Positions 9,944 through 59,000 of a DNA stretch of 64,000 nt are shown in pieces. The notes below the pieces were generated by a model. The model was given only the letters and a program-made list of their open reading frames with translations, did not search any database and had not been told where the DNA came from. A program made the position numbers and the translations under genes. Position 1 is the first letter of the stretch; the number at the start of each line of letters is the position of its first letter. The stretch comes from a virus, in the IMG/VR virus record IMGVR_UViG_3300033145_003080, positions 62,001 to 126,000 of that record; one strand, given 5' to 3'.

Positions 9944-9987
9944 ATGATAATAAATCTTATTAATATATGGCGAAAGGATAATGATTG

Positions 9988-11148
9988 ATGTTAAAAAGTG
10001 TATGGCTTTGGGCTACAGGATCATTGATGTCTGTATTTTTACTTATCAGATCAATGGTCCTTTATACTATACGGATACGAGGTCATCGTGCGAGCGTATT
10101 GTTTGACATGGTGAGACAAGAAGGTAGATTCTTCAAAATAAAGGAAGAATTTTGTGATGATGCTATTCCAAAAGAATTCAGGGCCATCGGATTTTTAAAG
10201 GGAATAATGTTCTATATTGATATTACAGAACGCATGCTTCAGGCAGGGTTCGCCGGTACCGACAGTATAATTAATGTCACTCTGGCCAGATGGAGAGTCA
10301 ATAAGTTTAAGAACATGATACTCACTCAGAAGATTATCAATACAGAAATCCCTATTTATATTATGCAGTCATGGGATGCTGAAAAAATTGGTGTAGTGAA
10401 AGCGCCGAAGATTTTTTATCCATCTGTGTATGGCGATGTGTACAATCAAATTGATCAATATATCCAAAATGTCATTAGTGGCCAAATGGATAAAACAGGA
10501 ACTATCCTACATGGCCCTCCCGGAAATGGCAAAAGCCTACTTGTTAAGCACTTCTCATGCAAATACAATCTTCCAATATACCTCCTATCATTAATGAGGG
10601 ATTTGGACAACCATTCTTTGATTAGAATGTTCGCTCGAGCAAAGGGGCCAGGTATTGTGTTGGTTGAAGATTTCGATACAACATATGAGGGCAGAAAATG
10701 CCTGATAGAAGAAGCAAAGTTCACGTTCGATACTTTACTTAATGTAATTGATGGTGCTTATTCAAATAATGAAAAGCTGATTTATTTCATGACGGCAAAC
10801 CACATTGATAGGATTGATTTTGCATTAAAATGCCGACCATCTCGTTTCCGAGTTGTCGTTGAGGTGCAGAATCCCAGTCAAGATGTTTGTGGTAAAATAT
10901 TGGAGAAGTATCAGAATAATGTGCATAAGACCAGTATTGTTGAGGGTGGGTATACAATGGATATTGTTATGTTTGCTAAAGAAATGCTTGACCATGGCCA
11001 CTCATTCTCTGATGTATGCAATAAGTTCATTCCTCAGTTTCAGGAAAGTAGTGAAGGGATAAGGAAAGATGCCGTTGAACAGCTTAGAAAGAAGAACGAA
11101 AAGCCTTCTGAGCCTCAAGCAGCAGTACCTGCGGTTACTGCATCATGA
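9988..11148 (+). CDS. Bcs1-like membrane-anchored AAA ATPase
   Basis: A 386-residue protein. Seen: N-terminal transmembrane helix (about 5-25), a 140-residue linking domain, then an AAA module with Walker A GPPGNGKS (about 176-183), Walker B IVLVEDFDT (about 223-231), LLNVIDGAYS and sensor-1 YFMTANH, followed by an FALKCRPSRF segment. The Bcs1 family has this membrane helix - middle domain - AAA order and the LLNxxDG...TTNH pattern. Members are protein translocases or remodelling ATPases; phage homologues are known but their role is not. The ATG at 9988 is preferred to the TTG three bases earlier. The gene overlaps the next by ATGA. Confidence 0.85.
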   Translation: MLKSVWLWATGSLMSVFLLIRSMVLYTIRIRGHRASVLFDMVRQEGRFFKIKEEFCDDAIPKEFRAIGFLKGIMFYIDITERMLQAGFAGTDSIINVTLARWRVNKFKNMILTQKIINTEIPIYIMQSWDAEKIGVVKAPKIFYPSVYGDVYNQIDQYIQNVISGQMDKTGTILHGPPGNGKSLLVKHFSCKYNLPIYLLSLMRDLDNHSLIRMFARAKGPGIVLVEDFDTTYEGRKCLIEEAKFTFDTLLNVIDGAYSNNEKLIYFMTANHIDRIDFALKCRPSRFRVVVEVQNPSQDVCGKILEKYQNNVHKTSIVEGGYTMDIVMFAKEMLDHGHSFSDVCNKFIPQFQESSEGIRKDAVEQLRKKNEKPSEPQAAVPAVTAS

Positions 11149-11828: not shown

Positions 11829-11967
11829 TTCTATTTTAGTAAGTATAGTTGGCCTTATTTTGGTAATAACACTAGCCTGTGTCGGCTTAGTGCTTATTAA
11901 AATAAACGAGACATTGGCCAAAATAGAAATTGCAATTAATAATCACAAAGGAGGTCCGGTACTATAA
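11821..11967 (+). CDS. Small single-span membrane protein
   Basis: A 48-residue protein: MFNSILVSIVGLILVITLAC opens one transmembrane helix (about 4-26), followed by a short charged tail. The ATG overlaps the upstream gene by eight bases and its TAA overlaps the ATG of the Toprim gene (TAATG). No family recognised. Confidence 0.6.
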   Translation: MFNSILVSIVGLILVITLACVGLVLIKINETLAKIEIAINNHKGGPVL

Positions 11968-14030
11968 TGGATTTAGGTCGTGATGTAGATTTGCATGAAT
12001 TTGCTGAATACATTAAAGACCTGTCGGGACAAATAGGATTTAAAGTCTCGGCGAGAGGATGGGCTTATTTATTGGAAACCAGACGGTTGGTAAATAAGGA
12101 CCAGTTCGACAGAGTAAACTCATTGATTAATCAGTGTAGAAAGAAAGGGCTTTTGCCCATTAATTTTGTTGCTGAAGACAGCGCAAGAATGTTTCAGGGT
12201 GTTGATGTACCAAGTAAAGTTGATGTCGTAACCGACCTTGGTGAATGGCTGAAATCAGCCAGCAATACCGCAGAGTATTATGATCTCGACTGGTGGGATG
12301 GTGAGGAGTACTACATACAAATGGTAGTGGAGAAGGTCGATTTGGTAACACTGTTTTCTCCCATATGCCGTGAATATCATATTCCCATTGCAAACTGTTT
12401 TGATGACAAAACAGAAATATTAACCGATAAAGGTTGGATTAAATTTGATGACATTGATTATACATACAATGCAGCATCAAAAGATGGAAATGGCGATCTG
12501 ATATATACACCAATATTGAATATAACAAAGCAAAAATATAATGGTGATATGTATCATATACAGAATAGGGGTACCGATCAATGTGTTACGCCAAATCACA
12601 ATTCGTATATAGCACGGCAAAGAAACAAGAAAGACTATGTAGTATTTGAATTATGTGACACAAAATCTGTTGTTCATTTACAAAATTTGAGATTTTCAAA
12701 GAAAATCAATTTTAATGGTCCTATTGTTGATAAATTTCATTTACCAATTCATAATAATTCAAATGGAAACAATACGATTAAAAAACATTTTAATATGAAT
12801 GATTGGTTAAAGTTTCTTGGTTATTATTTATCAGAAGGGAGTTGTTTAAAAAAAGATAGAAATCAATCATATATTGTTAGAATTTATCAGAAGAAATCTG
12901 TTCATCCAGGTGTGTATAATGATATTAAAAATTGTTGTAAATCTCTTGGTTATAATTTTTACGAAAATGATTGTTTTATTGAGATAAGCAATAAGCAATT
13001 GTATAACTATTTATCAATATTTGGCGATCATTGTTCAAAATTTATACCAAGGGAATTTCTTAATCTGCATAAAAAACAACTAAAGATATTATTAGATTCT
13101 CTTGTTGCTGGTGATGGGCATGTGAGGGGTAGTGATAGTATGTCGTATGCATCTACGTCTAAAGATCTTGCTGATGATGTTCAGGAGCTTGCATTAAAAG
13201 CAGGGTATTTTGCTTCGATGTCGACTAGGACAAAAGATGAGCTTAATAATAGTATTATAAATGGTAGAACTATTTCATATACTGGCAATCTGTATATAGT
13301 TAATATTTGCAAATCAAGAAATTATTTTCGTATAAATCATGGGAAAAAAGATTGGCAAAAAATTAATTATAATGGATACGTTCATTGTGTTGAGGTCGAA
13401 ACTGGTTTAGTATATGTAAGAAGGAATGGAAAACCGGTTTGGTCTGGCAACTCTAAAGGATGGAGTTCAATGTTACAGAGGGCAGAGTATGCCCGCAGGT
13501 TCGCACTTGCAGAAAGACAAGGGCTCAAATGTGTCTTACTTTACATGGGTGATCACGATCCTGATGGTTTACGGATTTCCGACTTTATCAGAAAGAATCT
13601 GGTTGATATCCAAGATGTTAAATGGTCAGATGGTCTTCCGGGGTATAAACCATACAAGTTAATAATTGAAAGGTTCGGATTGAACTTTGATTTTATCGAG
13701 CAAAACAATCTAACATGGATCGATAATTTAATTACCGGTTCAGGAAAGAATCTGGCGTCACCCAGTCACCGCAATTTCAATATGGAGTATGTTCAACAGT
13801 ATTTGAGTGAAATAGGTGAGCGCAAATGTGAAGCTAATGCTGTTGTGACAATGCCTGATTCAGCGAGGGATCTGATTAGGAAAACCATAGAGGGATATCT
13901 TGGTGAGGATGCACTTGATCGTTTTGAGGAAAGGCGTCAGGCTATCAGGGATGAACTTGATGCATATCTTGATAACTCTGGTGTTGGCGACAAGCTCGAT
14001 GGTATTATTGACGAAATAGACGAACGATAA
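11967..14030 (+). CDS. TopoVI-A/Spo11-like Toprim protein with intein
   Basis: A 687-residue precursor. Removing residues 144-495 (intein) leaves a 335-residue protein. Seen in the exteins: a helical N-terminal part with ARGWAYLLE, the segment VEKVDLVTLF...YHIPIAN|SKGWSS, and the Toprim core VLLYMGDHDPDGLRISDF (Asp residues about 528-533 of the precursor). The V-E-K-x-x-L...NSKGWSS plus GDhDPdG order is that of TopoVI A/Spo11-type Toprim domains, which bind Mg2+ at a DNA cleavage site. No catalytic Tyr domain could be assigned, so it may be a Toprim-only relative. The start forms TAATG with the upstream gene after AAAGGAGG. Splicing is required for function because the insertion splits the Toprim fold. 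Confidence 0.8.
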   Translation: MDLGRDVDLHEFAEYIKDLSGQIGFKVSARGWAYLLETRRLVNKDQFDRVNSLINQCRKKGLLPINFVAEDSARMFQGVDVPSKVDVVTDLGEWLKSASNTAEYYDLDWWDGEEYYIQMVVEKVDLVTLFSPICREYHIPIANCFDDKTEILTDKGWIKFDDIDYTYNAASKDGNGDLIYTPILNITKQKYNGDMYHIQNRGTDQCVTPNHNSYIARQRNKKDYVVFELCDTKSVVHLQNLRFSKKINFNGPIVDKFHLPIHNNSNGNNTIKKHFNMNDWLKFLGYYLSEGSCLKKDRNQSYIVRIYQKKSVHPGVYNDIKNCCKSLGYNFYENDCFIEISNKQLYNYLSIFGDHCSKFIPREFLNLHKKQLKILLDSLVAGDGHVRGSDSMSYASTSKDLADDVQELALKAGYFASMSTRTKDELNNSIINGRTISYTGNLYIVNICKSRNYFRINHGKKDWQKINYNGYVHCVEVETGLVYVRRNGKPVWSGNSKGWSSMLQRAEYARRFALAERQGLKCVLLYMGDHDPDGLRISDFIRKNLVDIQDVKWSDGLPGYKPYKLIIERFGLNFDFIEQNNLTWIDNLITGSGKNLASPSHRNFNMEYVQQYLSEIGERKCEANAVVTMPDSARDLIRKTIEGYLGEDALDRFEERRQAIRDELDAYLDNSGVGDKLDGIIDEIDER
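12396..13451 (+). mobile_element. Intein with LAGLIDADG homing endonuclease
   Basis: 352 residues inserted in frame. N-terminal splice block: Cys1 in CFDDKTEILTDKGWIKF. Block B: CVTPNHNSYIAR. DOD (LAGLIDADG) endonuclease motifs: FLGYYLSEGS and LLDSLVAGDGHV. C-terminal blocks: YVHCVEVETGLVYVRRNG and PVWSGN, with terminal Asn and Ser+1 in the C-extein. The residue before the last Asn is Gly, not the usual His, as in some other phage inteins. All parts needed for splicing and homing appear intact. It sits exactly in the conserved IAN|SKGWSS motif, typical of inteins in active-site sequences. Confidence 0.9.
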
Positions 14031-15887: not shown

Positions 15888-17180
15888 TTAATTAGCATCC
15901 TGTAATAACCGAATAGGAAGCCCCCACCTTTTACCAATCCCACACTTGATAAAACCGGCCGAATTAAAAGCAAGTTCACGGCAATATGCAGATTGTGTAT
16001 TGTAGCTTGTGGAACTCCACCAATAACAAAACAATCCAAAACCATAAGATTGGCCATTCGCATCATAACAATAGCCGGTTGGTAGGCCTGAAAACCCACT
16101 CTTATTATTTTTTGACAAATCCATACCAACTGTACCAATACCGGTATCAGGCTCTTTCCAATCTATGTTAGCGGCTAATGATTTTGCTGTCTTATTACCT
16201 TCTGTCGTCCCATCCCAATTAAATCCATTGGCAATTAAGTAATTCTGCAAGGTATCCCATTCTCCATTGGTCGAAATGTGCCAACCTGTCGGGGCAAGCT
16301 TTCCAGTATTTACAGCATGCCAATTGTATAAAGCTCCGTATTTCTCTATACTATCAACATTGGTCGTATTATTATAATAACAACACCCGGGCGTAGTAAG
16401 GGTTGACCATGTAGTATCATTTGTTATTAATGGTATTGTTGAACCATCGTTATATTTCGTTGTACGTAAATTTTCTATTGTCCATGTTTGCGATCCTATT
16501 TTTATCGTATGATATACATTCCCATCTATATCTACTATCGTACCAGGGTGAGTTATCAGTTTTATTTCTATACCATTAGTGTCTAAATTTGTTATGACCA
16601 TTTGGTAATCCAAATATCCATTTTTAGTCACTTTTATAACATCGCCAGTTGGGATACGGCTATTTGACAGGCTCGATGGTATTGTGGTTGTTAAGTCGCC
16701 TGTGCTTATTATTGTACCAACTGACACATTACCAATAGAATGGTTCTTTAATACAAATTTATTATTACCGATTTTAATATGATAAAAATAAATACCAGCT
16801 CCAACATTAGGCAGCGCTATTGAATGTATTCCAGCATCAATAGTCTTTCTTATTTCAGAAACAACCTTTCCTTGAAGAGTGTAAGCAGCACCTTCTATTA
16901 ATGATTTTTTTTGAACATTTACACATAAAAAACCGTTAAGTATTCTTATAGCGCGTATGTAAGGCTGAGATTGCTTTTGGTCGATTATTTCAACAGCATC
17001 GACAAGTAAAAACTCTCCATTTGTTTCTGTTGTATCGCTTATTCCAACATTTTCTAATATTACATTAGCCCCGATTACAGGCATGCCGTTAATATTCGTT
17101 ACTGTACCACTGATATTAACAGCTTGAATGGTACATAGTGATATGAATATCAATTCTGCTAACAATATTTTAATAGTCAT
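15888..17180 (-). CDS. Secreted FISUMP-domain protein
   Basis: A 430-residue protein. The start at 17180 follows AAGGAGGATATT and gives a signal peptide (MTIKILLAELIFISLCTIQA); an upstream in-frame ATG is rejected. Next is a carboxypeptidase-regulatory-like beta fold (about 22-65: SGTVTNINGMPVIGANV...ETNGEF), then a segment resembling secretion-sorting domains (GAGIYFYHIKIGNNKF), a second similar fold, and from about 216 a FISUMP domain: VDIDGNVYHTIKIGSQTWTIENL, W-H-A-V-N, P-T-G-W-H-I-ST, then WWSSTSY and LPIRLLQD at the end. Such proteins are characteristic of Fibrobacter and relatives, on the cell surface. A phage copy may be cargo that alters the host surface or a virion adhesin. Role not established. 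Confidence 0.8.
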   Translation of the reverse strand: MTIKILLAELIFISLCTIQAVNISGTVTNINGMPVIGANVILENVGISDTTETNGEFLLVDAVEIIDQKQSQPYIRAIRILNGFLCVNVQKKSLIEGAAYTLQGKVVSEIRKTIDAGIHSIALPNVGAGIYFYHIKIGNNKFVLKNHSIGNVSVGTIISTGDLTTTIPSSLSNSRIPTGDVIKVTKNGYLDYQMVITNLDTNGIEIKLITHPGTIVDIDGNVYHTIKIGSQTWTIENLRTTKYNDGSTIPLITNDTTWSTLTTPGCCYYNNTTNVDSIEKYGALYNWHAVNTGKLAPTGWHISTNGEWDTLQNYLIANGFNWDGTTEGNKTAKSLAANIDWKEPDTGIGTVGMDLSKNNKSGFSGLPTGYCYDANGQSYGFGLFCYWWSSTSYNTQSAYCRELAFNSAGFIKCGIGKRWGLPIRLLQDAN

Positions 17181-17228
17181 AATATCCTCCTTAAATAATA
17201 AAAGCAACGGATTTTTATCAGCTGCTTA

Positions 17229-17439: not shown

Positions 17440-17802
17440 TTAAACTTTCTTTAAGTAGTTTGCATACATCGCTCTGGTTTGCCCAATGTCGTCGGCCCAG
17501 CTCCAATGATTAAGCAGTAGGTTCTGAGCTTCATTATGATCCAGCTCAATCTCATCATCACAGGACATTTCGAGCATAGCGATTGCATCATCATACGCCT
17601 GTTCATGAGATTCCGGTGCAGACAGTCGTATATGAAAACTGTCAGTTTCGTCAGCAGTGAACTCTTCAAGCATTTCTTTGATGGCTGCAATCCCTGCTTC
17701 ACGAAACTCTCCATATGCTTTTTCAAATTCCTTCAGGTGCAGGTCTCTGTTTTCTTTAACTCTTTCCAAAAGCTTATCTCTATTAACACATACCCTTTTC
17801 AT
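17440..17802 (-). CDS. Conserved small phage protein, unknown function
   Basis: A 120-residue acidic protein. Seen: LLERVKENRDLHLKEFEKAY near the N-terminus, SAPESHEQAYDDAIAMLEMS in the middle, then an EIELDHNEAQNLLLNHWSW segment. This order (NR-x-x-H...P-x-x-H...YD-x-A-I-x-M-L-E...I-x-L...D/N-x-W-x-W) is that of a very widespread phage/prophage small protein of unknown function. Its ATG overlaps the upstream stop (ATGA). Confidence 0.75.
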   Translation of the reverse strand: MKRVCVNRDKLLERVKENRDLHLKEFEKAYGEFREAGIAAIKEMLEEFTADETDSFHIRLSAPESHEQAYDDAIAMLEMSCDDEIELDHNEAQNLLLNHWSWADDIGQTRAMYANYLKKV

Positions 17803-18243: not shown

Positions 18244-18644
18244 TGGTGGAGGTGAGGGGAGTCGAACCCCTGTCCACAATGCCTTCTTTTTGAACCTCTA
18301 CAATGCTTAGTCATGATTTAATCTCACTGCTATCAGCTTCCACAGACAGAATCAGACAACAGCCAGCTCCTTAATTTAACCTGCTGGTTGAAGCACCACA
18401 ACAGGCGAGGATTCTAAGGCTACCCAGTGATTCCGAATCCACTCCTCACTGAGTTTGTCATCTTTTTATTAGATGACGGCTATGTCCTGCCGGGCATTTG
18501 CATAGCAAAGTGCACCAAAAGCAAGACAGAAATCGACATTAGATTTGCCAATTAGAGTTATGACCGATATTTAACGAGGCCAACGATCATCCTCGGCATG
18601 CAGTTCAAACGTCCGTTCATCATGTCGAAAACCAATACACCCCC
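18244..18644 (-). ncRNA. ssrA: tmRNA (ssrA)
   Basis: A complete 401-nt tmRNA. The 5' end GGGGGTG pairs with CACCTCC before ACCA, giving a 7-bp acceptor stem with a G3-U wobble, the alanyl-tRNA synthetase identity element. The T arm is a 5-bp AGGGG/CCCCT stem with loop TTCGACT. The 5' region contains TTTTCGAC and the conserved TGCATGCCGAGG with CCTCG pairing (pseudoknot 1; ATGATCG/CGGTCAT form its second stem). A tag frame begins about nt 96-97 and ends at TAATAA in the loop of a GTCATC/GATGAC hairpin, as in helix 5 of known tmRNAs. The most consistent frame starts GKSNVDF and ends ANARQDIAVI (26 residues). CCA is encoded. It starts four bases after an upstream stop codon, so it is probably cut from an operon transcript. 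Confidence 0.93.
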
Positions 18645-18648
18645 TTAT

Positions 18649-18816
18649 TTAAATAGATTCTTTTTCCGGCTCTTCTTTCTTTTCAAGATCAAAGTAATCA
18701 TTATTCACTGCACAGTTCTGTGCCATATCTTTTATGTTACATTCTTCATACCAAAAACAATCTGTGTGTTGACAATCCTCTGTATGTTGATAATCCTCTG
18801 TGTGTTGACAATCCAT
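18649..18816 (-). CDS. Small Cys/His-repeat protein upstream of tmRNA
   Basis: A 55-residue protein beginning MDCQHTEDYQHTEDCQHTDC, that is three tandem (C/Y)QHTE(D) hexapeptides, then CFWYEEC and an acidic tail. The ATG at 18816 follows CGGAGG at good spacing; the ATG at 18819 and a GTG at 18846 are weaker. Six Cys and three His suggest metal binding. Its stop lies four bases before the tmRNA 5' end. No family recognised. Confidence 0.6.
   Translation of the reverse strand: MDCQHTEDYQHTEDCQHTDCFWYEECNIKDMAQNCAVNNDYFDLEKKEEPEKESI
18761..18814. repeat. Three 18-bp tandem repeats
   Basis: Unit tctgtgtgttgacaatcc on the plus strand, three perfect-length copies; the middle copy differs at two positions. 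In frame, they encode the hexapeptide repeats of the gene at 18649-18816. Confidence 0.9.
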
Positions 18817-18838
18817 CATATACCTCCGTAACGAGGTT

Positions 18839-19036
18839 TTATCCACTTGGTAGATGAATCCAAATGAACTTTATCAGAATCGTGAATGTCGCTATAGCTG
18901 AATAGACGACAAAACACGTTCCGCTGGTTTTGAACGATATTACCCATACAGCCTTATTACCATCTTTTAGAACACCGAGCAATGATAATAAAAACCATAT
19001 GAAGAATAATACCCATATTATAAAAATATATTCCAT
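18839..19036 (-). CDS. Small two-span membrane protein
   Basis: A 65-residue protein with helices IFIIWVLFFIWFLLSLLGV and CFVVYSAIATFTILIKFIW around a short positive loop. The start at 19036 follows GGGAGATGTT and is preferred to an upstream in-frame ATG inside the previous gene. No family recognised. Confidence 0.6.
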   Translation of the reverse strand: MEYIFIIWVLFFIWFLLSLLGVLKDGNKAVWVISFKTSGTCFVVYSAIATFTILIKFIWIHLPSG

Positions 19037-34677: not shown

Positions 34678-35121
34678 ATGGATATTGATTTTTTCACAGA
34701 CTTAAGAAGCCAGTTTAAAATTAGCATTGGTGATAATCCTCAAGGTGTTGAGGGAAACCGTGCGCTGTTAAACCGGTTTGAGATAACATTTTTGACAAAA
34801 ACAAAGATGTTTCTATTTGATGGTAAATTAATTACAGATGATTATGCTGGTGATGCTGAAAAATATATTAATAAACCTCAAGTGCTAAACGACCCACAGA
34901 GCATAGCAGGAGGAGTTTCGGTATCTATTGACCAGACAGTGGCGTCTATGAAAAGTGATGAGCCGCCAGGAGTTCCAAATACTGAAAAAATTGAAAGTGC
35001 AGAGCTTATTGATATAGAAATTATTGATGACATTGTTTTTGCAAAAATACAGGTACACCCTGTAGAAGTTGAACTTTATCAGGATCTTATGTTTAATTTG
35101 CCAATCATCAAAAAGGATTAG
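34678..35121 (+). CDS. Small baseplate-region protein, possibly gp25-like
   Basis: A 147-residue protein. Seen: GNRALLNRFEITFLTKTKMF, a Pro/Asn-rich loop and a C-terminal ELIDIEIIDDIVFAKIQVHP. An early RALL-x-R-x-x-x-x-L-T strand and a late alternating V/I strand directly upstream of a J-like gene recall gp25/GPW-like baseplate proteins, but the match is weak. There is no Shine-Dalgarno before its ATG, perhaps because the IsrB element was inserted immediately upstream. Confidence 0.5.
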   Translation: MDIDFFTDLRSQFKISIGDNPQGVEGNRALLNRFEITFLTKTKMFLFDGKLITDDYAGDAEKYINKPQVLNDPQSIAGGVSVSIDQTVASMKSDEPPGVPNTEKIESAELIDIEIIDDIVFAKIQVHPVEVELYQDLMFNLPIIKKD

Positions 35122-35158
35122 AAATAATCATTTAATATTTCTATATAAAATAAAAAAA

Positions 35159-36337
35159 ATGATACAGAAAAAGTCGTATAAATTTAGAATTTATCCAAAT
35201 GACACTCAAAAGATTTTGTTGAATAAAACGTTTGGTTGCGTGAGATACATGTGGAACCAAATGGTGGAATCATTTAAAAAAAAAGAAAACCATAAATCGG
35301 CAACTATTTTACGCAATGAAATTGAATGGTTAAAAGAAGTGTCTGCAGCATCAATTCAACAAAAAGAAATTGATTTTAGAGAGTTTAAAAAACAATTCTT
35401 TTCTAAAAATAGAAAAAGAAATATTGGGAAACCTTCATTTAAAAAGAAGTATCAAAAGCAGTCGTATAGACTTCCCAATCAGAAATTTGTTTTAGATCAA
35501 GGAGAATCAAAAATTAGGTTGGAGAAAATAGGTTGGATAAAAATAATATTAGATAGAAAAATACCTAAACATATATATTATTTATCGGTTACCATTTTGA
35601 AAGATAAGGTTGGTGATTATTATGCGTCTATTCTTGTTAATGAAGAAATTAAAGAACTTCCTAAAACAAATAGGGTGGTTGGTGTTGATTTAGGAATAAA
35701 AGACCTTATTACCACCTCTGATGGATTGCAGGTAAAAATGTTTGATGAAAGCGAGAGCCAAGCTAGGATTAAACGTTTATCTAAACATTTATCAAGGAAA
35801 GTGGTGGGGTCTTTGAGGTTTAATAAACTTAAAAATAAAATAGCAAAAACTCACAGAAAGATTGGTAGAAAGCGCAATTGGTTACATCACAATATTTCTT
35901 TATTTTTGATTAAAAATTATGATGAAATAATTTTAGAAGATTTGAATGTATCTGGGATGATGAAAAACCGCCAATTAGCAGGATTTATTCATAGACAAGG
36001 ATGGTCATCTTTAGTAAACCAGATCAATTATAAATCAAGATGGTATGGTAGAAAGAGCAAAAAACTTGATCGATGGTTTCCTTCTTCTAAAACATGTTGT
36101 GAATGTGGCACTGTTAAAAAAGGTTTAAAATTGTCAGAGAGAGTCTACGAGTGTGAATGTGGTAACAAAATTAACAGAGACTTTAATGCATCTCTAAATA
36201 TTAAATCCGCAGGAGTTACTACGGATCAACGGTCGTTGATGGAATGTGAGACTTTTAATCCTAAAAAGCAATCTTTAGAGTTAAAAGCAATTCCAAGTGA
36301 AATGATTAATCTAATAGAAAAGAATAAAATTCTATAA
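35159..36337 (+). CDS. tnpB: TnpB RNA-guided endonuclease
   Basis: A 392-residue protein beginning MIQKKSYKFRIYPNDTQKIL, the usual TnpB N-terminus; the start at 35159 is preferred to an upstream in-frame ATG in the previous gene. RuvC-I: VVGVDLGIKDL (Asp about 177). RuvC-II: IILEDLNVSGM (Glu about 261). Zinc finger: CCECG then CECGN (about 314-336). RuvC-III: NRDFNASLNIKSAG (Asp341). All catalytic and zinc residues are present, so it is likely active. TnpB cuts DNA guided by an omega RNA made from its own 3' end. No tnpA accompanies it. It lies between virion genes without breaking either, like a homing nuclease. Confidence 0.9.
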   Translation: MIQKKSYKFRIYPNDTQKILLNKTFGCVRYMWNQMVESFKKKENHKSATILRNEIEWLKEVSAASIQQKEIDFREFKKQFFSKNRKRNIGKPSFKKKYQKQSYRLPNQKFVLDQGESKIRLEKIGWIKIILDRKIPKHIYYLSVTILKDKVGDYYASILVNEEIKELPKTNRVVGVDLGIKDLITTSDGLQVKMFDESESQARIKRLSKHLSRKVVGSLRFNKLKNKIAKTHRKIGRKRNWLHHNISLFLIKNYDEIILEDLNVSGMMKNRQLAGFIHRQGWSSLVNQINYKSRWYGRKSKKLDRWFPSSKTCCECGTVKKGLKLSERVYECECGNKINRDFNASLNIKSAGVTTDQRSLMECETFNPKKQSLELKAIPSEMINLIEKNKIL

Positions 36338-36348: not shown

Positions 36349-39300
36349 ATGTTTGATTTTTGGGCTTTTTTGAGAAAGAAATGGTCTGAATATTCGAAGT
36401 CTAGGGGCCAGAAGGGTACTATGATTGATGACCTTGCTGTAAAACCGGCCGGGCTGATCTTGGCTAATTTCTACAACGCCCTTGCTGGACAGAGAAGGGT
36501 TAATAACATCTCGCTTTGGAAAACAATGACCGATGAAGAGCTAAACTTTTTTGGGAATAAATTTTTTACTAAGAGGATAATGGGTGATTTCTCTATTGGA
36601 TCGGTGCGTGTTTACTTCAATGAGAAAAAAAATATCGAACTTTCTACTATAGCCCGGTTTGTCTCAAATCGAGGTTTGCAGTACCGCCCTATTCAGCCTG
36701 GAAAGATAGCAGGTAGCTCATTTAGCAGTTCAACAGATAGGATAGCACTTTATCATATCGACATACCAATTATTGCAGTGTCAAAAGGTGATGAGTACAA
36801 CACTGATGCGAATGAAATAGTCCAACTTATTAATATCGACTTTACTTATCATTCAGCAACAAATCCTGAAGATATAATTCGCGGATCAAAATATGAGACA
36901 AATGAAGAATATTTCAATCGTCTTGTTTATACTGTGAATGACCGCAGTATGATGAATAAGAAGAGTATGATGGTTCTTCTTCCCGAATTTTTTCCAGTTA
37001 TTAATGCAATGTATATAGCAGGTGCTGGTGACCGATATATGCAAAGAGATTTAATTGCCGGCGTTGACCTGTCCCTTCCTTATAAAGAAGCAACCTATCT
37101 TGGCAAGTTAAAAGGTGAGAATATAGTTAAACATATTGGTTTTTATGGTATATTCCCACCGAATGTAGGAAGCCTTCAGTCGAACAGGTACTGGGGGCCA
37201 CATTCAGCGGTATCAGAATACCGCTATCCCCTAACTATAGAACAATCATCATCTGCATTCAGCCCTGAACAGACAGATCCGCGGCTAAACGATCCTGCAT
37301 TCCTTGGGTTTCCACTTGACCAGGAGTGTGTCGATAATATGTATAAAGGTCTTTACTTTAACGATTATAAACGATTTATGGAAGTAAGAACTGAAGATCT
37401 GTTTAATATTGTTGATGAAGAGGTTGGGTTTACACCAGTGCTACCAGATGTAACATGGAAGTTTGGTGCGCATGGACTTATGCCGGGTAATGTTGGCAGG
37501 CTTGCTGACAATGTGCAGAATATAAATGTGGTTAGTTTTTATGACACTGAAATCAGACTTGCCGGTGGTGCGTATAATTCAATTTCTGTCGGCAAGGACA
37601 TTCTCAAACGTACCGGGGTAAAATTAACCGGTTCTTTTATTTGTCCCGAACCTGCTGATGAAAATTCTCCAATACTGAATAGCAATCTGCAAATTATGAT
37701 TGGTGGTATAAATGATTTAAATCTTGTTGATGGATATACTGGTGTCGGGTTTGGCATTAGAATGACTGATATATATGATGAAGGTGATATTGATGTGCCG
37801 AATGCAGTTATATATTTTGCCCATAATGAAAAGTATGGGACCGCCCAGGTTTATGCGACTGATTATGATATCAGTGACCATATTTCAGTTTCAGATATAG
37901 GAGCCCTTGCCGAAAAAGAATTTAGAATTCAGCCGAATATCGAATACGAATTTGAGTTTATTATTTATGATGATTTAAGATTATCGCTTTATTTCAACAA
38001 GACAAGTGAAAAGCAACCGTCAGATCCATATGAAAAAGAGAATGAATTTCATTTCGAATTGCCTCGTAAAGTTTTGGGAATATTTTCTGACGAAAGCAGA
38101 CAGGGTTTATTGTCAACGAGCAATATACGATATGGTACAACAATGAAGGCGACACTTGACACAGAGTCTCTCGTTTCAGAGGATATATGGCGAATAAATG
38201 ACTTAAAAGCTTTTGATATGAATCCATCGAAAGCAATGGCGTTATATGCTATAAATATGGATGATATAGAAAGCCCCATATCTGTCTTTCTTCGAGCATT
38301 TGGTTCGAGTGCTATCGATAATGCCCAGGCTGATGGCTACCAGGTGTTCTTATGGGATAAGGAGGTTCAGACAATAGCCTCTGGGTCGTCAGAGCTTACT
38401 CGAGGAGGTTGGGCTGAAGCAAACGGTATATCCAACCCAGATAGTTCAAAAAGTTCTGCCCTTGGTCTTTTAAGGCATGACATACAAAACATGGATCGGT
38501 ACCTGGTTGATAGTAAGTTCGGCAAAAACATTTTTATCATGATATTAACCACAGGTGTTTCGAAAGGGTCAATACGATATAATAGAGATATTCGAGATGA
38601 TGTCCATTCTTTTCTCCGTGTTGATTATATAAAAGCTGAGAGTATGAATATAGCATCTTATCACGCAAATAATAAAGCAGACATACACCTTGCAACCCTT
38701 AATAATTCGGAAGAGTATGAAGTCGTTACTACAACTCTCACCAAACAACCTAATGATACTTATTTTGAAATGAGTCTCGAGAATAAATGTAAAATGCCTG
38801 TGGTTGAGATGGTGTCTGTAACTATAGGTACCACTGTTAGTGACACTGAAACTCTTGCAGAAACTGAATATTCTATGATTGACTCAGACGTTTTATTGCT
38901 TAATTCCTCAAAAGAAAAGAAGCATATAACTTTGAATGAATCTGATGCTGATACAATAACAGTCGAATATAGAACGTATCCGGAAATTGAACGTATTCAG
39001 GACTTTTTTGAAAGCTCTATATATCAAAAAATTTATGGCGACTTTCTCATTAAACACAAAATGCCATGCGATCTTGATTTTACAATTTTTTATACCGGAG
39101 ATATCAACGATGATCAATTGATAACGGAAATAAGAAAATATGTTGATGATAATATTGATGGGGTGTTTTCTATACGGAATTTTATCAGCTATCTCTATAA
39201 TGAGGAGCTGGTTAACAATATCAAGGAACCTGTCGAGATATCGTATACTAAATGGAACGATGAGTGGGAGCAAGAAACGGGAACCTTTACCGATAAGCTC

Positions 39301-39357
39301 CCAATAAGGCCAATCGGTTTTTTTAGGATTGTAAGCCTAAACGTGCAGAAGTTATAA
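36349..39357 (+). CDS. Baseplate J-like (gp6-type) protein
   Basis: A 1,002-residue protein. The first 250 residues have the Baseplate_J order: SIGSVRVYFNEKKNIELSTI, then ARFVSNRGLQYRPIQPG, IPIIAVSKGDEYNTDANEIV, and NPEDIIRGSKYETNEEYFNR. Residues 380-560 look like a lectin-like beta sandwich insert. The C-terminus (LDFTIFYTGDINDDQLITEI, VDDNIDGVFSIRNFISYLYN) also fits the J family. J-like proteins form the wedge of contractile-tail baseplates. The length is about twice the usual, due to the insert. AAGGATG precedes the ATG. Confidence 0.7.
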   Translation: MFDFWAFLRKKWSEYSKSRGQKGTMIDDLAVKPAGLILANFYNALAGQRRVNNISLWKTMTDEELNFFGNKFFTKRIMGDFSIGSVRVYFNEKKNIELSTIARFVSNRGLQYRPIQPGKIAGSSFSSSTDRIALYHIDIPIIAVSKGDEYNTDANEIVQLINIDFTYHSATNPEDIIRGSKYETNEEYFNRLVYTVNDRSMMNKKSMMVLLPEFFPVINAMYIAGAGDRYMQRDLIAGVDLSLPYKEATYLGKLKGENIVKHIGFYGIFPPNVGSLQSNRYWGPHSAVSEYRYPLTIEQSSSAFSPEQTDPRLNDPAFLGFPLDQECVDNMYKGLYFNDYKRFMEVRTEDLFNIVDEEVGFTPVLPDVTWKFGAHGLMPGNVGRLADNVQNINVVSFYDTEIRLAGGAYNSISVGKDILKRTGVKLTGSFICPEPADENSPILNSNLQIMIGGINDLNLVDGYTGVGFGIRMTDIYDEGDIDVPNAVIYFAHNEKYGTAQVYATDYDISDHISVSDIGALAEKEFRIQPNIEYEFEFIIYDDLRLSLYFNKTSEKQPSDPYEKENEFHFELPRKVLGIFSDESRQGLLSTSNIRYGTTMKATLDTESLVSEDIWRINDLKAFDMNPSKAMALYAINMDDIESPISVFLRAFGSSAIDNAQADGYQVFLWDKEVQTIASGSSELTRGGWAEANGISNPDSSKSSALGLLRHDIQNMDRYLVDSKFGKNIFIMILTTGVSKGSIRYNRDIRDDVHSFLRVDYIKAESMNIASYHANNKADIHLATLNNSEEYEVVTTTLTKQPNDTYFEMSLENKCKMPVVEMVSVTIGTTVSDTETLAETEYSMIDSDVLLLNSSKEKKHITLNESDADTITVEYRTYPEIERIQDFFESSIYQKIYGDFLIKHKMPCDLDFTIFYTGDINDDQLITEIRKYVDDNIDGVFSIRNFISYLYNEELVNNIKEPVEISYTKWNDEWEQETGTFTDKLPIRPIGFFRIVSLNVQKL

Positions 39358-49685: not shown

Positions 49686-50042
49686 ATGAACATAATAAAT
49701 AAAAGCATTGATGATTTTATTGATCGAAAAACGTCCAAGATTACTTTGCTGGGCAAAGAACTGAACTGCACTTTCTCAGCGATACCGGCCAAGGATAAGT
49801 TCGACAATGATATTTTCGAAGTGGATAGAGAAATAGTAAAAGCCTACTACCCAGAGTTTAAGACATTTGCTAAACAGGTATTTGGTATTGAAAAAGATAA
49901 TGGGTTTACTGATACGGAGGGCGTATTTCACCCAGGTACTGGTGAGGACATTATTCCTTATGACTCAATGTACCTTGCTGATGAAAGACTTTATACACGA
50001 GACTATATGATCAAAAATATAATGAAACAGAGGGCTGAATAA
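49686..50042 (+). CDS. Small protein upstream of the giant fibre gene
   Basis: A 118-residue protein: MNIINKSIDDFIDRKTSKIT, mixed alpha/beta, with many Asp/Tyr in the last half (YDSMYLADERLYTRDYMIKN). No Shine-Dalgarno. Its TAA overlaps the ATG of the giant gene (TAATG), so the two are coupled and could be a subunit and its partner or chaperone. Confidence 0.55.
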   Translation: MNIINKSIDDFIDRKTSKITLLGKELNCTFSAIPAKDKFDNDIFEVDREIVKAYYPEFKTFAKQVFGIEKDNGFTDTEGVFHPGTGEDIIPYDSMYLADERLYTRDYMIKNIMKQRAE

Positions 50043-53000
50043 TGCCTTCAATAAGAAATTGGGATACTGCTAATCTTGTTATGTCAATTGCTCCAAATGC
50101 ATTAAAGCTCGGTGATAACCCCGTACCATTTAATAGTGGTACGTTTCCTGTTTATCAAGGTGGGAGTGCCGGAAGTAAGATAACGGGAATCTTGACAAAT
50201 ATGTTAAGTGGATATGGGTATGCGGATGGAAAGATAAAATTTGATAAAGTTGATGACCGCATTGCAGAAGATAAAAACATACCTATAACAGATGCTAGTA
50301 AATTTACTGTAGAGGTCTGGTTAGATTATATCAGTGGTGGTGGGGCAGGAACATTTTACAGTGAGGGTGATGACGGAAATAATTTTATTGAATTTTTACA
50401 TGGTGTTGGCAATGATAAAATTTGGATAAGATATTGCGTTGGGGGTACAATTAAAGAAGCAATTAGTACACAACGAATAAATGTACCAGGTTTATGGCAC
50501 ATAGCTGCCCGCAAGGACGGTGCAACACTACAACTTTTTATTAATGGCGTTGAGGTTTCTGGGTATGATGCTCAAGATACCTATAATTTAGGGAGTAAAA
50601 CTTTTTTAGGTGGTGCAAATATCGGAAGTGCCAAAAGGGGAGCGGTGGCACAAAATTTTTATGGTGGTGGGATGTACCAAGTAAATATATACGACGACGC
50701 TATTTCAGATGCTCGTATCTTAGCTAACTACAATGCAGGTAAGTGGAATGATGGAATACGTGGTGTTGACAATGAAGACGATACAATAACTCTCACAGAC
50801 CCAGCTAATTTAGTTCCACCGCCAGCTAGTGTAACTAAATTTAGTGATTCAAAATATGCAAAACTTCTTGGTGTCAGAGAACAAATGGTGGCAAATAATG
50901 ATACATTTATACCACTTTACATAAACGAACACCATATAAACGATGATAGTGGTTTCTTTACAAATGTAAAAAATGCCAATGGTTCTGATATAATACCAAC
51001 TACTATTGAAGGTATCGAAATACCAATGGAGCTTATATCGTTTAATAAAGCTGGTGAAACTATAACTGCCGTAATTCAAGTTCCCTCTGTTTTGGCATCA
51101 AGTAATTTTGTAATAGCTTTACAATATGGTGGTGACACCGCGGCAAGAACCAAAGCATCTACTTTAGTATGGTCTGATTGTTATGGTGGAAGTATTGATT
51201 ATGCCTTAGTTGCTCATGGAGAAGAAACAGAGGCCGACTTAACAGATGCGAGTGGGAATTATACTGCCACTGATGCGGACATTACTTATGCTCAAAACGG
51301 AAAAATTTTAAAGGCGCCAAAAGGAAATGGTACTAATTCTATTTCGGATTGGGGAAATGTCACAGAACTTAATTCTGTTACGAAATTTACAACAATGTTA
51401 TGGGCTACGTATGAAATAGTGAACGAGCATGTCGATTTATGGGCAAAATATATCAATGGTTCTAATCAATTACGCTTTTTTTCATTTACTGATGGAAAAA
51501 CTTACTTTGTTATAAAAAATGCAGGTACTTCCAGTTCGTATTATACAACATCATTAAATACAACCTTAAAAAATGTTGTGTGTGTATATGATGGAGACGG
51601 TGTATCGGATGCTGATAAAACCAAGGTGTATACAAACGGTCTGGCGGAAACACTGACGTTTACCGGAGAAGCACAGCCAGCATCTACACCAGATTTATCA
51701 GCGACGACTTTTGCGTTGATGAACATTCCAGTTGGCTTTCCACCCGAGCCCCTAACAGCAGCCCCTGAAGGGATTTTAGATGAGTTTCGTTTGATAGCAG
51801 GAGCTCTTTCAGCTAACCAGATTTCTTTACATTATGATAATGAATCTACTTATGAAGTAAATGGGCTTTGGGACTTTGGTCCAAAAAAGGATTTATTTGA
51901 TCAGTTTATAGAGTTAAAAGCCTCAACAATCACGTTTTCAGTTGGCACAGCTGCTGCGAGCGCCGATGAATATGTGACCAAAACTATATCGGGCGCAATG
52001 CCAACGGCTGTTATCCAAAATGGCGTGCTTACCTTTTCTGTTCCACAGATAAATCCATATATTGGCGTAGGCGATAAGGTTGAGTTAGATGATGGATCCC
52101 CGTTCTATATATATCTTAATGAAAAAATAGACACCAGACAGTGGAAGGTGCATGATGCTTTTGGGGATTTTCCGGACGATAAAACGACACCTCTGCCGGT
52201 AACTACTATTGACAAAACATTCAACGATGTTCGTGCAGCAATTAATGGTGATACGTCTGGTGCTTATGCTCTTATGGGTAATCAACACGATTTGATTTCT
52301 AAAAGAGCGATGCTTCGAATAGCATGTTATGAGATGTATGATGATATGGGTGCGAATACACTTTCTATTTCAAATTTATGGGTTGTTGACGACAAATACA
52401 GAGTGAAAATATATACACCACGAAATATTTCCATTGAATGCAATAAAAGTCAAAAACACATTAGGGGGAGGGCCGACCTTGGGGGTTATCGAGTAGCATC
52501 ATCTTCAAATGTTATTAATATGGCTGGCAGCAGGGTAATTATTGACGGGTTGGGCGTTGGGGATAATGGTTATAGCCCCGGATATGCAATCAGGATTGAC
52601 AGTAACAACGAGCGGTGTCAGGTGATTAATAATGTGGTGTTTAAATCTACTAATGGTATCGAGGTCATTGCCACAGCTCCGGAAGAATATACAATCGCCA
52701 ACAATATCGTAAGAGACTGTAGCAAAGGAATTATCCTTAACCCATCGTCAACAATAGGTGGCGCCTGTTTTGATAATGATGTCGTAAATTGCTCGATTGC
52801 CGGTATCGAATATAGCGGAAACAACCTTACTGAGATAGCCAATAATATTGTTCAGGATTGTGGAACTGATATTGAAGATAATAGCGTAGGGCTTTCTAAT
52901 GTGAGTAACTGTATTACGAGTGACGCTTCATGTGCTGGTGGGGTTAATTGCCACCCAAGCACTTCCCTTAAATTTGAAGATAAGGTGAATTATGATTACC

Positions 53001-56000
53001 GCCCTCATATAAGCGACACAGTAGCCTACACTGGTGGTGCTGGTCTTGATTTATCAACAAATTCAAAATACGGGTTTGTCAAAGACATTGATGGCGAAGA
53101 GATTGATAGTACCTGGTGCATTGGCGCTTTTCATAAAACGCCAGAAGTAACATTCAGTGTTGGTCCAGACACTGACATAAAAGTAGCAGCTAATTACTCA
53201 ATTGCTGACGCAATTATGACATTCAGCGCCGCGCAGACGCATGAACTATTAAGTGCAGGATGTGTAGTTACCGATGCTGGTACCAGTCATCTTCTTAAGC
53301 GGAAGATATCTAATACCAAATGGGAAGTAACTGATTTTGACGGAACTCCGGCTTCTGATGCTGCAGGTCCAGTTACTATAATAACCATAAAACACCATAC
53401 AACAAATCTGTATGATCTGATAACTGATTCTGCAGAAGTAACTCACATCTTTAATCGATTAGGGTCAATTAATTTAGCAGCAACTGATATAAACGTTAAA
53501 GTGGCCTGTGTGGCCGGCGTTTCATCCAGGACATCTAAAGTTGATGATTATACTTGTGATAGGCATAGGCATGTTGATATATTTGCTCCAGACCTTTCAA
53601 ACGCCGATTATCTCGAGTCAAATCAGAATCGAAAACACAATGGCAAATGGGGAGAGCTTTCTTATATTTCGAGCACAACAGATTTCCCTGCAAACCAACC
53701 TCATGAAATATACGGTGACCGGGGTGGCTACGGTATAATTTTTAATAGCGGGGCTGACTTCTGCACTGTCAAAGGGGTTCAACTCTCTTCTTCTATTGAT
53801 GGCGTTTTGATCGACGGTGCTAAAAACATTATTGTTGAAGACAACATTGTAAAGGATTGTAAAGGTAATGGAATTACGGTAACCGGTAAGGAAAAGTCGA
53901 ATGAAAACCTGATAGCAAAAAATATTATTTACCAGTGTGGTGGAAGTGGAATAGAAATTCAACATGGTGCAGCATTCGAAACTTATTATGAAGCAAAATT
54001 TGGAACTCCTGCTGATAATGGTTTTATCATAACATCAATATTCGGACATTCTCATATTTTTAAAAAATATACTGTTACTGTAACTTTCGGCGTTGAAAAT
54101 GAAATAGATTGGTATCCCGGGCGAATTGTTATTACTGTTGATCCTGGTTCAACTTTTGATGATATCCTGACAAGTGGAAATATATTTGGTACACCATGGG
54201 CCACATTGGCAGCTGATGGAACAAATCCGGTAAATTCATTATCAGAAACACGAATGGAAGACGCCGTAACCTTGCTTGAGTATCATGAAGACGGTTTAGG
54301 TATTAGCCATTATATTTATAATAATACAATATCAAAATGTCAACGCGGCATTTATATAGAAACGCTGGCTACCCAGGACTGGATGACAAATGTTGCGGTT
54401 CTTAGGAATAATGCCATTTCTGAATGTGATTTTCAGAATTATTATTCTACTCATGTGTTTCCCATTACAATACTTGCCGAAAACAATTGGTCTGATGACC
54501 AATCAATATATAACTTTTATGGATCAGGTAATAGTGATACTCTTATTTCTATATTTGTTAATCCTTTTGCAGAAGATTATCGTATATCATTATATGATTT
54601 AGAGAGAATGGAAGGTATAAATCTTGTTGCCGATGAAAATTTTCAGATAGAGCATGATAATGTTGGGATTAAATATGCAACATATCCTCGATGGGCTATT
54701 GGTGCAAATACATGGAAATTTCGGAAGAAATCTATTCATTGTTCAGTTGGGGCTGAAGGTGGAAATCTTGATGAGTTTCCAAGTGGTCGAGAAATAACTA
54801 TTGAAAATGGGATAGCTCAATTTAATGAGAACAATGATATAGGTGCTGACATTGGTATTGGTGACAGAATTCAATATGATGATGGAGGTCCTGAATATTG
54901 CTATCTTGCTGAGAAAGGTGCTCAGCACAGGTGGTGTGTGGTTGATGGGAGTGGAAATCAGATAATAAGCCTTGCCACCAAAGATGTAACAGATTTTACT
55001 CGAGTGTCAAATAGTCTTGAAGACGCCTTTAATACAGACATTACTGCCGAGTTCCCTGATATAAATAACAAAGATATTGTTTCTGATGCTGTTGATTTAT
55101 GTGTATGGTGTTGCGATGATAATGATACCATAGATGATGTCGATGAGGTTGTAATAAACGATTGGGACACAAGTCCATTTTACAGAATATATGTACAAAC
55201 GCCTTGGGATATTCGAACTCAATGCATGTCGCAGCAGAGAAATACTGGTGTGTGGGATGGGTATCGTATTAGATCGACACAGGCTCCAAATGGCTTTTCG
55301 GGGATAGTCATCAATATTGTTAATACAAATCATGTTGTAATCGAAGGTCTTTCTGTAGAGCCACACAATACGTTAGGAGTCGGCATAGGTACCAACTCCA
55401 ATAGAGATGGTATCATAATTAGTAAGAATGTGATCAAAAATGGTAACATCGGTATCGAAATTTTAGGAACTGAGGGACGCGGAAACCGGGTATATGGTAA
55501 TATTCTTTATGATCAAATACAGACTAATATCTCAACTGATGGTGGTAGTGTAATTAACAATACTGCTGTTGGCACATCTGTTAATGGTATTTTGGTGGAG
55601 AACGCTTTAGATGAAAGTGTAAACAATATTTGTCAAGACCAAACAGCGATATGTTTTGGTGGATTTGGAAAAATACGCGCTTGTGTAAGTAGTGATGGTT
55701 CTGCTGGAAGTGATGATGGCTGTATATCAAATGCAACATTAAATTTTGTTGACAAACCAGGTAAAGATTTTCATCTTCATAGAGGTGATTGGCATGCGCT
55801 TAATCGTGGTACAAAAAGAGGTTTTCTTTTCCAATTCAAACTTGACACAAGTGCATATACTGACTATTCATTTTACCGTGATATTGATAATGAGTCAATG
55901 AATAATGATGAGTGGTCTATCGGAGCGGACTCAATGATAGACCTTGAAACTATTGACTTATATTTTTCAGCCTCTCGAGACACAACTGATTTTAAACAAG

Positions 56001-59000
56001 GCGCCAGCCCATATCTTGAAATACTAAATGGCATAATGACATTTTCAGAATCTCAAGATCACCAAAAAATTGGCATTGGGGATAAAGTTGATTATGATAT
56101 TGGCAATAAAATTTGTTATTTATATCAGAAGATTTCAGATACAATGTGGGAAGTGCGTGATAAATTTGGAATTGCCCCGCTTAATACAAGTGGTCCTGTT
56201 GATTTGAATGCAATCAATAAGGCGTTCACAGTTTCTACTCATTATATTTTTGATGAAACTGATTCAGAAAGCATTCAGCAGTTTCTTGGTGACAGCAACA
56301 ATCCATTTCTCCATTTAAGATCAGCGCGATATAGGCTGCACCTTTCAATGTATAAGCATAATGTAGACCAGGAATATACCACATTAAGATATTTCGATAC
56401 TAATGAAAGCAATTATTTAAGATTATTTGCTCCAAAAGATATTAGAAATCAATGTAATGTTTCTCAGGCTCATAATGGCAGCACATATTCAGGGGCTCAA
56501 AGAATTAATATACAGGCGGATACCCATCACGCCCTCAGCATTTATGTACCTCATGTTTGGATTGATGGTATTCTTGTCAGTGGAGACAATGCTAATGACA
56601 CAGACTCGATAAGGTTGTATAATTCAAGAAATTGCAAAATAGTTAATAACATGTTAATGAGTGGTCCTAATGGTATCAAGCCGATTGATATGGGACATGA
56701 TGATTTTACCGGTGATCATTTTGAAGGTTCAATCAGAACTGATATATGGCATACGAATTTTTATAGCAATTGGGAATTAAGAAATGTTCCCGGTATTGGA
56801 TATGTAGCAATACCTGAATGGGCTCAGATTAGTGTTAAAGATAATTTAACAGATCCTGGGACTTTAAAGGTAGGTGATTTTGATTATGAACTCGGAATGG
56901 TATTGGGTTCTGATGATTCTGTTGGTCAAAAACTTCGTTTTATTTTAGAAGACGGTGGTGGAATAAAAGCAGAATGTAATTGGGAAAATGGAGTTCTCAG
57001 CTTTGGTGGATCAACGCTCAATTTCCCATGGAAATTCAATCGTGAATATAAAATGCGCCTTGTCCGAGGTGGCACGATAACTTCTGATGGTTTATACGAG
57101 GATGATGCTGGCGAAGACAGCACTACTTCTCTTTATTATCTTGATAATTTTAACGAAGGGGATGGCGAAGGCACCGAGAAATGGATTAAACATCCTGGAA
57201 CATACACCTCATGGTCAGGAAGCCATTGGATTGAAGTAGAAGGACCGAAGGCTCATGGGTTCAGCTATATTGATCTTTGGGTTGCATCTGAACCTCTTCC
57301 TGGTGGTACAAAGCTTGTTGGGAGAAACGCAAATAATATAATTGTTAACAATGTTGCTTTCGATAAAGAAGAGAATGGAATTATAACATCAAATACAGAT
57401 ATTCTTTATAATAATACTGTTGATGACTGTGTTGAGTATTGTTATCATAATGAAACAACTGATGTGTTAATTAATAATATTGGGCAAAGGGGTGGAACTA
57501 ATGATTTTTATAATGGTGATACTGCTGAATTCTGTATTGCAAGCGACACATCTCTTGTGGTTACTGGCGAAAATAGAAATATAAATAGTCTCATACTCAC
57601 ATTTGTTGATAAGATCAGCACGCCGGAAGAGCGCGATTATCATTTAGAACTTACTTCCGATGATAGTGCAATATGGTCTGCAAAAATGCTGACTGGAAAT
57701 CCTGATTATCCGTTTGATTTTGATGGTGGTGGCGTTCCACGTCTTAGAAAATGGGATCGTGGTGCATTGGAATACCAAACCAAAAGGGTTGTTTATGCTA
57801 TTGGCGATAACGGCATAGACCATCAGACAAAACCGTCAATCGGAAGTGTAACATATGTAATCGAAGAAAATGCTGGAAAAAGTTATATAACTTTTTCTAC
57901 ACCCCAAACCAATCAAAGCATGGGTATCGGCAGTCAAGTAGTAGATATTGGAAGTCCATTTTCAAATGGGTGTCTTATTATAGAGAAAATAGATGAGTCG
58001 AAATGGTTAGTTGCTGATTATATTGGTGACAACGTTTCAGATAAATCCGGTTCTGTTTATAGTATTTATAGAGTTTTTAATACATTGTGGAGCGCTTTAG
58101 ACACTTCTGGATTTATTAGTTCTATTTATTTAAATTCTTCTTCTTTTCAGGCTGTTGGGGTTCGTGTTGAATTAATTTGTTATAATGAGGGTCGTGGCAG
58201 GTCGGTTGAACAAGCGTTGAATGTGGACTATATTGGGTGTGATAAACATCATAATTTAAGAATCAAAACTCCTTCTGATACAATTACCGAATGCAATTCT
58301 TCACAAAGACATGATGGGTTGTATGATGAGGGTTATAAATTTGAGCCGGAAATATTTGAAGATAGCATTGCTTCGATGTATTTCTTTCAGACTACATATA
58401 TTGAAATAGAAGGCATTCTTCTTAATGCCGATGAGCAGTTTAAAGATGGTATCAATTTATTTGATTGTCGTGATGCATACGTCGGATACAATGTGGTAAA
58501 GGATTGTGGTGGGAATGGAATTGTACTCCAACCATCTGTTAATCCGGAAGATGTTGTATTCAACAATCTCGTATATGATTGTGTTCGTGATGGTATTGTT
58601 GTAATAGCTGAATATAGTGCATTCTTTTCGATACTAATCAGAATAAATAATAATACGGTTGTGAATTGCAGAAGAGCTTTTTATCTTGAAAAATTTGATG
58701 AAGAGTATGGTGCGGGGTTGTCAATTGAATTAAGAAACAATATTGCTCAAGATTCGAAGTATCAAGATTATGTATCAACTTATGAAAATCATTTTGGAAG
58801 ATTCGCGTTATATAATTGTATAAGCAGCGATTTATCATCATGGCTATTCCCCGGGACTGGGAATATAAAAAATCAATATGTAAGATTTATTGGTAGACCA
58901 AATAATTTTAATTTACACAAAGTTAGTGATGGCTTCGCTGTAGATAATGCACTTGATTTAAGTACTGATTGGCTCCTTCCCTTCTTCGATGACATTGGTG

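What the first reader, a model, noticed from the sequence alone, without database searches (positions are those of the whole stretch)
18244..18644. Phage-encoded complete tmRNA
The 401-nt gene has every tmRNA hallmark: 7-bp acceptor stem with G3-U, TTCGACT T-loop, TGCATGCCGAGG/CCTCG pseudoknot, tag frame ending in TAATAA in a hairpin loop, and encoded CCA. tmRNAs are rare in phages. It sits in an operon of small membrane and Cys-rich genes, directly behind a stop codon, so it is probably released by processing.
Basis: partly seen in the sequence, partly recalled or inferred. Interest (0 to 1): 0.75.

Follow-up and report, generated by a model that had tools for sequence, protein, structure and literature searches.

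The report
Phage tmRNA with unusual conserved tag
This uncultured phage carries its own complete copy of the bacterial RNA that frees stuck ribosomes; such copies are already known in about 2% of phages, but this one and two related phages share a long tag sequence of their own that lacks the usual 'destroy me' ending.

Summary
A complete one-piece tmRNA gene lies at 18244-18644 on the minus strand (Rfam RF00023, 162 bits, E=4e-64; ARAGORN agrees). It sits in a 149-kb virus record that has a baseplate gene, so it is phage-borne. tmRNAs in phages are known (about 2.3% of genomes), so presence alone is ordinary.

New here: the tag was mis-called. ARAGORN reports ARQDIAVI. Comparison with two related phages (208 and 186 kb; tmRNA between the same flanking genes) shows a 26-codon frame that starts at the canonical resume position (A at -4): GKSNVDFCLAFGALCYANARQDIAVI. 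The relatives encode GKTNIDFNVMFGAMCYANTKQDIAVI and GKSNIDFCTLFGALCYANAHAAVAETAVL. Substitutions are biased towards keeping the amino acids (P about 0.001-0.004), and four helices differ between the phages but stay paired. The tags end in AVI/AVL; all 46 distinct control tags end in A, 42 of them in AA. The core motif was found in no tmRNA of about 85,000 prokaryote genomes. The phages encode neither SmpB nor ClpP.

Best reading: a working phage tmRNA that rescues ribosomes with host SmpB but adds its own tag, probably a weaker degron or one for another protease. The last step is inferred. Host unknown.

The parts
18244..18644 (-). tmRNA (ssrA) gene, one-piece, 401 nt
   Evidence: RF00023 162.2 bits, E=3.7e-64; ARAGORN
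18638..18644 (-). acceptor stem 5' strand GGGGGUG (includes G3 of the G3-U70 alanine identity pair)
   Evidence: 7 of 7 pairs; identical in G001 and G024
18248..18254 (-). acceptor stem 3' strand CACCUCC
18244..18246 (-). encoded CCA end (relatives end in TAA and CTA instead)
18560..18595 (-). pseudoknot 1 (CGAGG/CCTCG and ATGATCG/CGGTCAT)
   Evidence: stems keep pairing through sequence changes in G001 and G024
18472..18549 (-). tag reading frame, 26 codons from resume codon GGC: GKSNVDFCLAFGALCYANARQDIAVI
   Evidence: alignment with G001 and G024; -4 A and -5 U before GGC match A86/U85 of E. coli
18466..18471 (-). tandem stop codons TAATAA
   Evidence: first stop conserved in the three phages
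18457..18477 (-). stop hairpin (P5) GUCAUCU/AGAUGAC; A-U replaced by C-G in G024, which turns the last residue from I to L
18380..18405 (-). pseudoknot 3 stem CCTGTTG/CAGCAGG, largely rewritten by paired changes in the relatives
18326..18363 (-). pseudoknot 4 stem GCTGTTGTC/GATAGCAGT
18255..18271 (-). T arm, loop TTCGACT
18649..18846 (-). upstream small Cys-rich ORF, stop codon 4 nt before the tmRNA; conserved next to the tmRNA in both relatives
   Evidence: blastp 88% over 33 aa in G001 and 36% over 44 aa in G024
17440..17802 (-). conserved downstream flanking ORF, 120 aa, no family hit
   Evidence: 57% and 50% identity in the relatives; no Pfam hit

Best explanation
This is a working, one-piece phage tmRNA. 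After processing it would be charged with alanine by the host enzyme, bind host SmpB (the phage encodes none) and enter ribosomes stalled on broken messages. It would add Ala plus a phage-specific 26-residue tag, GKSNVDFCLAFGALCYANARQDIAVI, and release the ribosome at UAAUAA. Gene identity, the tag frame and purifying selection on the tag are shown here, and the RNA stems are kept through sequence change; activity is inferred from the anatomy. Because the tag keeps a conserved core (FGA[LM]CYAN) and ends in AVI/AVL instead of the usual LAA, the most likely purpose is to keep ribosomes free during infection while treating the tagged fragments differently from host-tagged ones, by slower ClpXP degradation or by another protease. 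That last step is inference.
For: Full-length RF00023 match. Two related phages carry a tmRNA between the same flanking genes. P1 with G3-U70 is invariant; PK1, P5, PK3 and PK4 stay paired although their sequences differ. The tag frame from GGC is open in all three, with the same context CTAATT or ATAATT before GGC-AAA, so A at -4 and U at -5, the frame-setting bases of E. coli tmRNA (PMC2481249). Amino-acid changes are fewer than under random placement of the same substitutions: 8 against 12.7 expected (P=0.004), 3 against 7.2 (P=0.0009), 6 against 10.1 (P=0.003). ARAGORN itself calls the long tag in G024. C-termini IAVI, IAVI and TAVL contrast with 46 distinct control tags, all ending in A. 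The core motif occurs in no other tmRNA: viral collection, only these phages; 16 hits in the genome collection, none in a tmRNA. No SmpB or ClpP match in the three phages.
Against: No expression or activity data. Only three sequences. G001 has an altered T-loop (TCTCGGAT), no encoded CCA, and is missed by ARAGORN, so it may be decaying. The host is unknown, so host tag and host proteases could not be compared. Engineered E. coli tags ending in AAV or ASV are still degraded (recalled from Andersen et al. 1998, not checked), so AVI/AVL need not abolish degradation. The control tags are ARAGORN calls, mostly host genes at prophage edges and Bacteroidota, and ARAGORN may favour A-ending tags.
Confidence: 0.72

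Rival explanations
1. Ordinary tmRNA supplement: the phage RNA simply adds rescue capacity and its tag is degraded like any host tag. The long tag and AVI/AVL ending are neutral drift in a lineage whose host proteases tolerate them.
For: Tag lengths of 8-35 residues are reported in bacteria (PMC8012679). Rescue, not degradation, is what matters for survival of E. coli (same paper). Hydrophobic C-termini are common to tags.
Against: The C-terminus and the FGA[LM]CYAN core are conserved while RNA stems and third codon positions change; no control tag ends this way.
Confidence: 0.3
2. Interference: the phage tmRNA competes with host tmRNA for SmpB or alanine and damps host trans-translation, as proposed for the tag-less tmRNA of phage DS6A.
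For: The phages encode no SmpB, so competition is unavoidable if the RNA is abundant; DS6A-like RNA inhibits endogenous tmRNA in E. coli (PMC11915505, PMC4131195).
Against: Unlike DS6A this RNA keeps a complete, selected tag frame with stop codons, and all major stems sought were found, which an inhibitor would not need.
Confidence: 0.12
3. Passenger or remnant: a host ssrA copy picked up at an attachment site or by recombination, with no function in the phage.
For: ssrA is a common integration site; most IMG/VR contigs found with the 5' motif look like prophages that end at host ssrA (inferred from tags and position near contig ends). G001 shows decay-like changes.
Against: The gene lies inside the phage genome between conserved phage genes in three divergent phages, has no close bacterial relative among those compared, and the tag and stems are maintained.
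Confidence: 0.05
4. The tag is the short ARQDIAVI that ARAGORN prints, starting at GCC 54 nt further on.
For: ARAGORN output.
Against: ARAGORN calls the long frame in G024; codons upstream of GCC are conserved at the amino-acid level in all three phages; GGC sits at the canonical distance after pseudoknot 1.
Confidence: 0.03

Closest known systems
Bacterial one-piece tmRNA (ssrA, Rfam RF00023)
   Same: Full tRNA-like domain, pseudoknots, resume codon context, stop hairpin
   Different: 26-codon tag ending in AVI instead of a tag of about 10 codons ending in AA; no close bacterial relative among those compared
Known phage tmRNAs (Bacillus phage G, mycobacteriophages Bxz1, Catera and Wildcat, Methylophilales phage Melnitz)
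   Same: Complete tmRNA on a phage genome
   Different: Phage G tag AKLNITNNELQVA; Melnitz is two-piece (PMC9004378). Mycobacteriophage records could not be fetched, so their tags were not compared
Mycobacteriophage DS6A tag-less tmRNA
   Same: Phage-borne tRNA-like domain
   Different: [quoted passage not shown] ours has a full, selected tag frame
Long-tag bacterial tmRNAs (for example Mycoplasma and Chlamydia, from memory)
   Same: Tags of 20 residues or more
   Different: Sequence unrelated as far as recalled; not tested here

Membership tests
tmRNA (RF00023) | Covariance-model score above the curated threshold over the full model | tested here: met
   162.2 bits against 47, positions 1-374
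tmRNA (RF00023) | tRNA-like domain with G3-U70 and T arm | tested here: met
tmRNA (RF00023) | Tag frame with resume codon four bases after a conserved A, ending in stop codons in a hairpin | tested here: met
tmRNA (RF00023) | Tag ends in the usual degradation signal (-AA); typical of the family, not a requirement for membership | tested here: not met
   ends in IAVI; relatives IAVI and TAVL
tmRNA (RF00023) | Alanylation, SmpB binding, tagging activity | not testable with these tools
   needs experiment
Phage-encoded tmRNA | Gene is on a phage genome, not host DNA | tested here: met
   149-kb virus record, baseplate wedge protein, synteny with two viral contigs
Complete phage-encoded trans-translation system (tmRNA plus SmpB) | Own SmpB | tested here: not met
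   no PF01668 match in G000, G001 or G024; 10 of 14 control genomes rang. The records may be incomplete
DS6A-like tag-less inhibitor tmRNA | No tag reading frame | tested here: not met
   26-codon frame under selection

The most novel reading that the evidence does not exclude
A phage lineage has rewritten the tmRNA tag so that stalled proteins are labelled with a conserved phage-specific peptide that spares them from ClpXP or hands them to another protease, separating ribosome rescue from protein destruction during infection.
Probability: 0.3. Interest if true: 0.7.

Novelty: new variant of a known kind. Interest (0 to 1): 0.42.

Why it matters
Why phages carry tmRNA is an open question. A tag that is conserved between phages, whose core motif is absent from every bacterial tmRNA searched, and which lacks the usual degron ending gives a concrete handle. 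It suggests that the tag itself is selected in the phage, and it can be tested with a simple reporter fusion.

Tried and rejected
(1) Close relatives in isolate phages: only the short 3' T-arm region matched. The tag peptide by tblastn gave nothing, but so did a recalled mycobacteriophage tag, so short peptides are a weak test. (2) QDIAVI-stop pattern in viral contigs: G001 plus one chance hit inside a methyltransferase-like ORF. (3) 5' tmRNA motif scan of viral contigs: mostly contigs ending at host ssrA, useful only as controls. (4) FGA[LM]CYAN in 85,000 genomes: 16 hits, none with a tmRNA. (5) Donor or host from tmRNA similarity: no clear donor; among Bacteroidota (395 genomes) matches were almost all short T-arm matches and global alignment did not single out a phylum. 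A TnpB search of plasmids was uninformative. Host remains unknown. (6) Alternative genetic code, suggested by a CUA-anticodon tRNA: coding density does not support TAG or TGA reassignment. (7) Mycobacteriophage records for tag comparison were not available. (8) crAss-like 'tmRNA' annotations overlap a tRNA-Cys call and look like permuted-model false positives; not pursued.

Full report
Check of the observation. Rfam's tmRNA model matches window 18644-18244 on the minus strand end to end (162.2 bits, gathering 47, E=3.7e-64), and ARAGORN reports the same 401-nt gene. The window is positions 62001-126000 of a 149,037-nt virus record with a single tmRNA. A baseplate wedge protein at 36349-39357, phage helicases and an exonuclease, and synteny with two other large viral contigs show it is phage DNA.

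Relatives. A protein search led to G001 (208 kb) and a second to G024 (186 kb). Both carry a tmRNA (118.7 and 161.4 bits), placed in the same gene neighbourhood between homologues of the ORFs at 18649-18846 and 17440-17802. Among 33 viral records searched because they hold a homologue of the phrog_1735 protein, only G024 has a tmRNA above threshold, so the gene belongs to one small clade as far as these partial records show.

The tag. ARAGORN's ARQDIAVI is too short. In all three phages the frame is open from GGC just after pseudoknot 1, in the context TAATT-GGC-AAA, with A at -4 and U at -5. In E. coli that A (A86) is the main frame determinant (PMC2481249). The peptides are GKSNVDFCLAFGALCYANARQDIAVI (window), GKTNIDFNVMFGAMCYANTKQDIAVI (G001) and GKSNIDFCTLFGALCYANAHAAVAETAVL (G024; ARAGORN itself calls this one). 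Placing the observed substitutions at random sites gives more amino-acid changes than seen (8 against 12.7, 3 against 7.2, 6 against 10.1; P=0.004, 0.0009, 0.003), and would create a stop codon in 23-45% of trials. The three P-values are from three related sequences and are not independent.

The RNA. PK1, P5, PK3 and PK4 stems stay paired in all three although sequences differ; the PK3 stem is CCTGTTG/CAGCAGG, CTTATGA/TCATAAG and CTCATGAA/TTCATGAG. The helices were picked by eye in each sequence, so this is a description, not a formal covariation test. In P5 an A-U to C-G change in G024 turns the last residue from Ile to Leu, so the tag end and the hairpin constrain each other, and part of the conservation of the last residues may come from the hairpin.

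How unusual is the tag? A few of these control calls are dubious (crAss-like phages). The motif FGA[LM]CYAN in any codon choice hits only G001 and G024 among viral contigs (the window's own record is left out of such searches), and none of 16 genome hits lies in a tmRNA. This tests only that motif; close variants would be missed. Tag lengths of 8-35 are reported for bacteria (PMC8012679), so length alone is not new.

Mechanism. Shown: gene, structure, frame, conservation. Inferred from established knowledge: alanylation through G3-U70, host SmpB (none found in the three phages), resumption at GGC, release at UAA. Inferred with less support: a changed fate of tagged proteins. The usual degron is a C-terminal LAA read by ClpX; AVI/AVL departs from it, but engineered tags ending in valine are still degraded (from memory), so weaker or different recognition is a guess that needs an assay. 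The phages carry no ClpP match.

Known or new. Phage tmRNAs are established: 402 of about 18,000 genomes (PMC9004378), with mycobacteriophages, Bacillus phage G and DS6A listed by PMC4131195. This is a new variant of a known kind because of its tag. G001's altered T-loop and missing CCA warn that at least one copy may be degenerating. The host is unknown.

Noticed in passing
L006:17824-17897 (minus), record position 57824-57897, outside the window: ARAGORN reports a tRNA with anticodon CUA (amber suppressor type, weak D stem), and a second odd tRNA call at L006:18235-18308. Coding density gives no sign of stop-codon reassignment.
   Followed up: partly
window 9985-11148 (+): AAA+ ATPase, nearest to FtsH, proteasome-activating nucleotidase and CDC48 models but far below their cut-offs; 73% identical homologue in G024.
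   Followed up: partly
window 35069-36337 (+); L008:7968-9134 (+); L005:18602-19789 (-): Three TnpB-type transposase genes (phrog_506) in one phage record.
   Followed up: no
window 15888-17207 (-): Fib_succ_major domain protein with a carboxypeptidase-regulatory-like domain, which I associate with Bacteroidota or Fibrobacterota. In both relatives its homologue lies on the other side of the tmRNA.
   Followed up: no
window 50042-59632 (+): 3196-aa protein with laminin-G and parallel beta-helix (NosD) domains, probably a tail fibre or receptor-binding protein.
   Followed up: no
window 11967-14030 (+): 687-aa protein with a LAGLIDADG domain, possibly an intein or homing endonuclease.
   Followed up: no
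L108:6404-6804 (record G035, 133 kb): Another viral contig with its own complete tmRNA, tag ANNAVAGRIGFAAPVALAA, no match among isolate phages.
   Followed up: no
L215 and L216 (crAss-like phages cr7_1 and cr124_1): Annotated tmRNAs that overlap a tRNA-Cys call; probably permuted-tmRNA false positives.
   Followed up: partly
L010:1501-1899 (G001): tmRNA with an 8-nt T-loop TCTCGGAT and no encoded CCA, missed by ARAGORN although its tag is conserved.
   Followed up: partly
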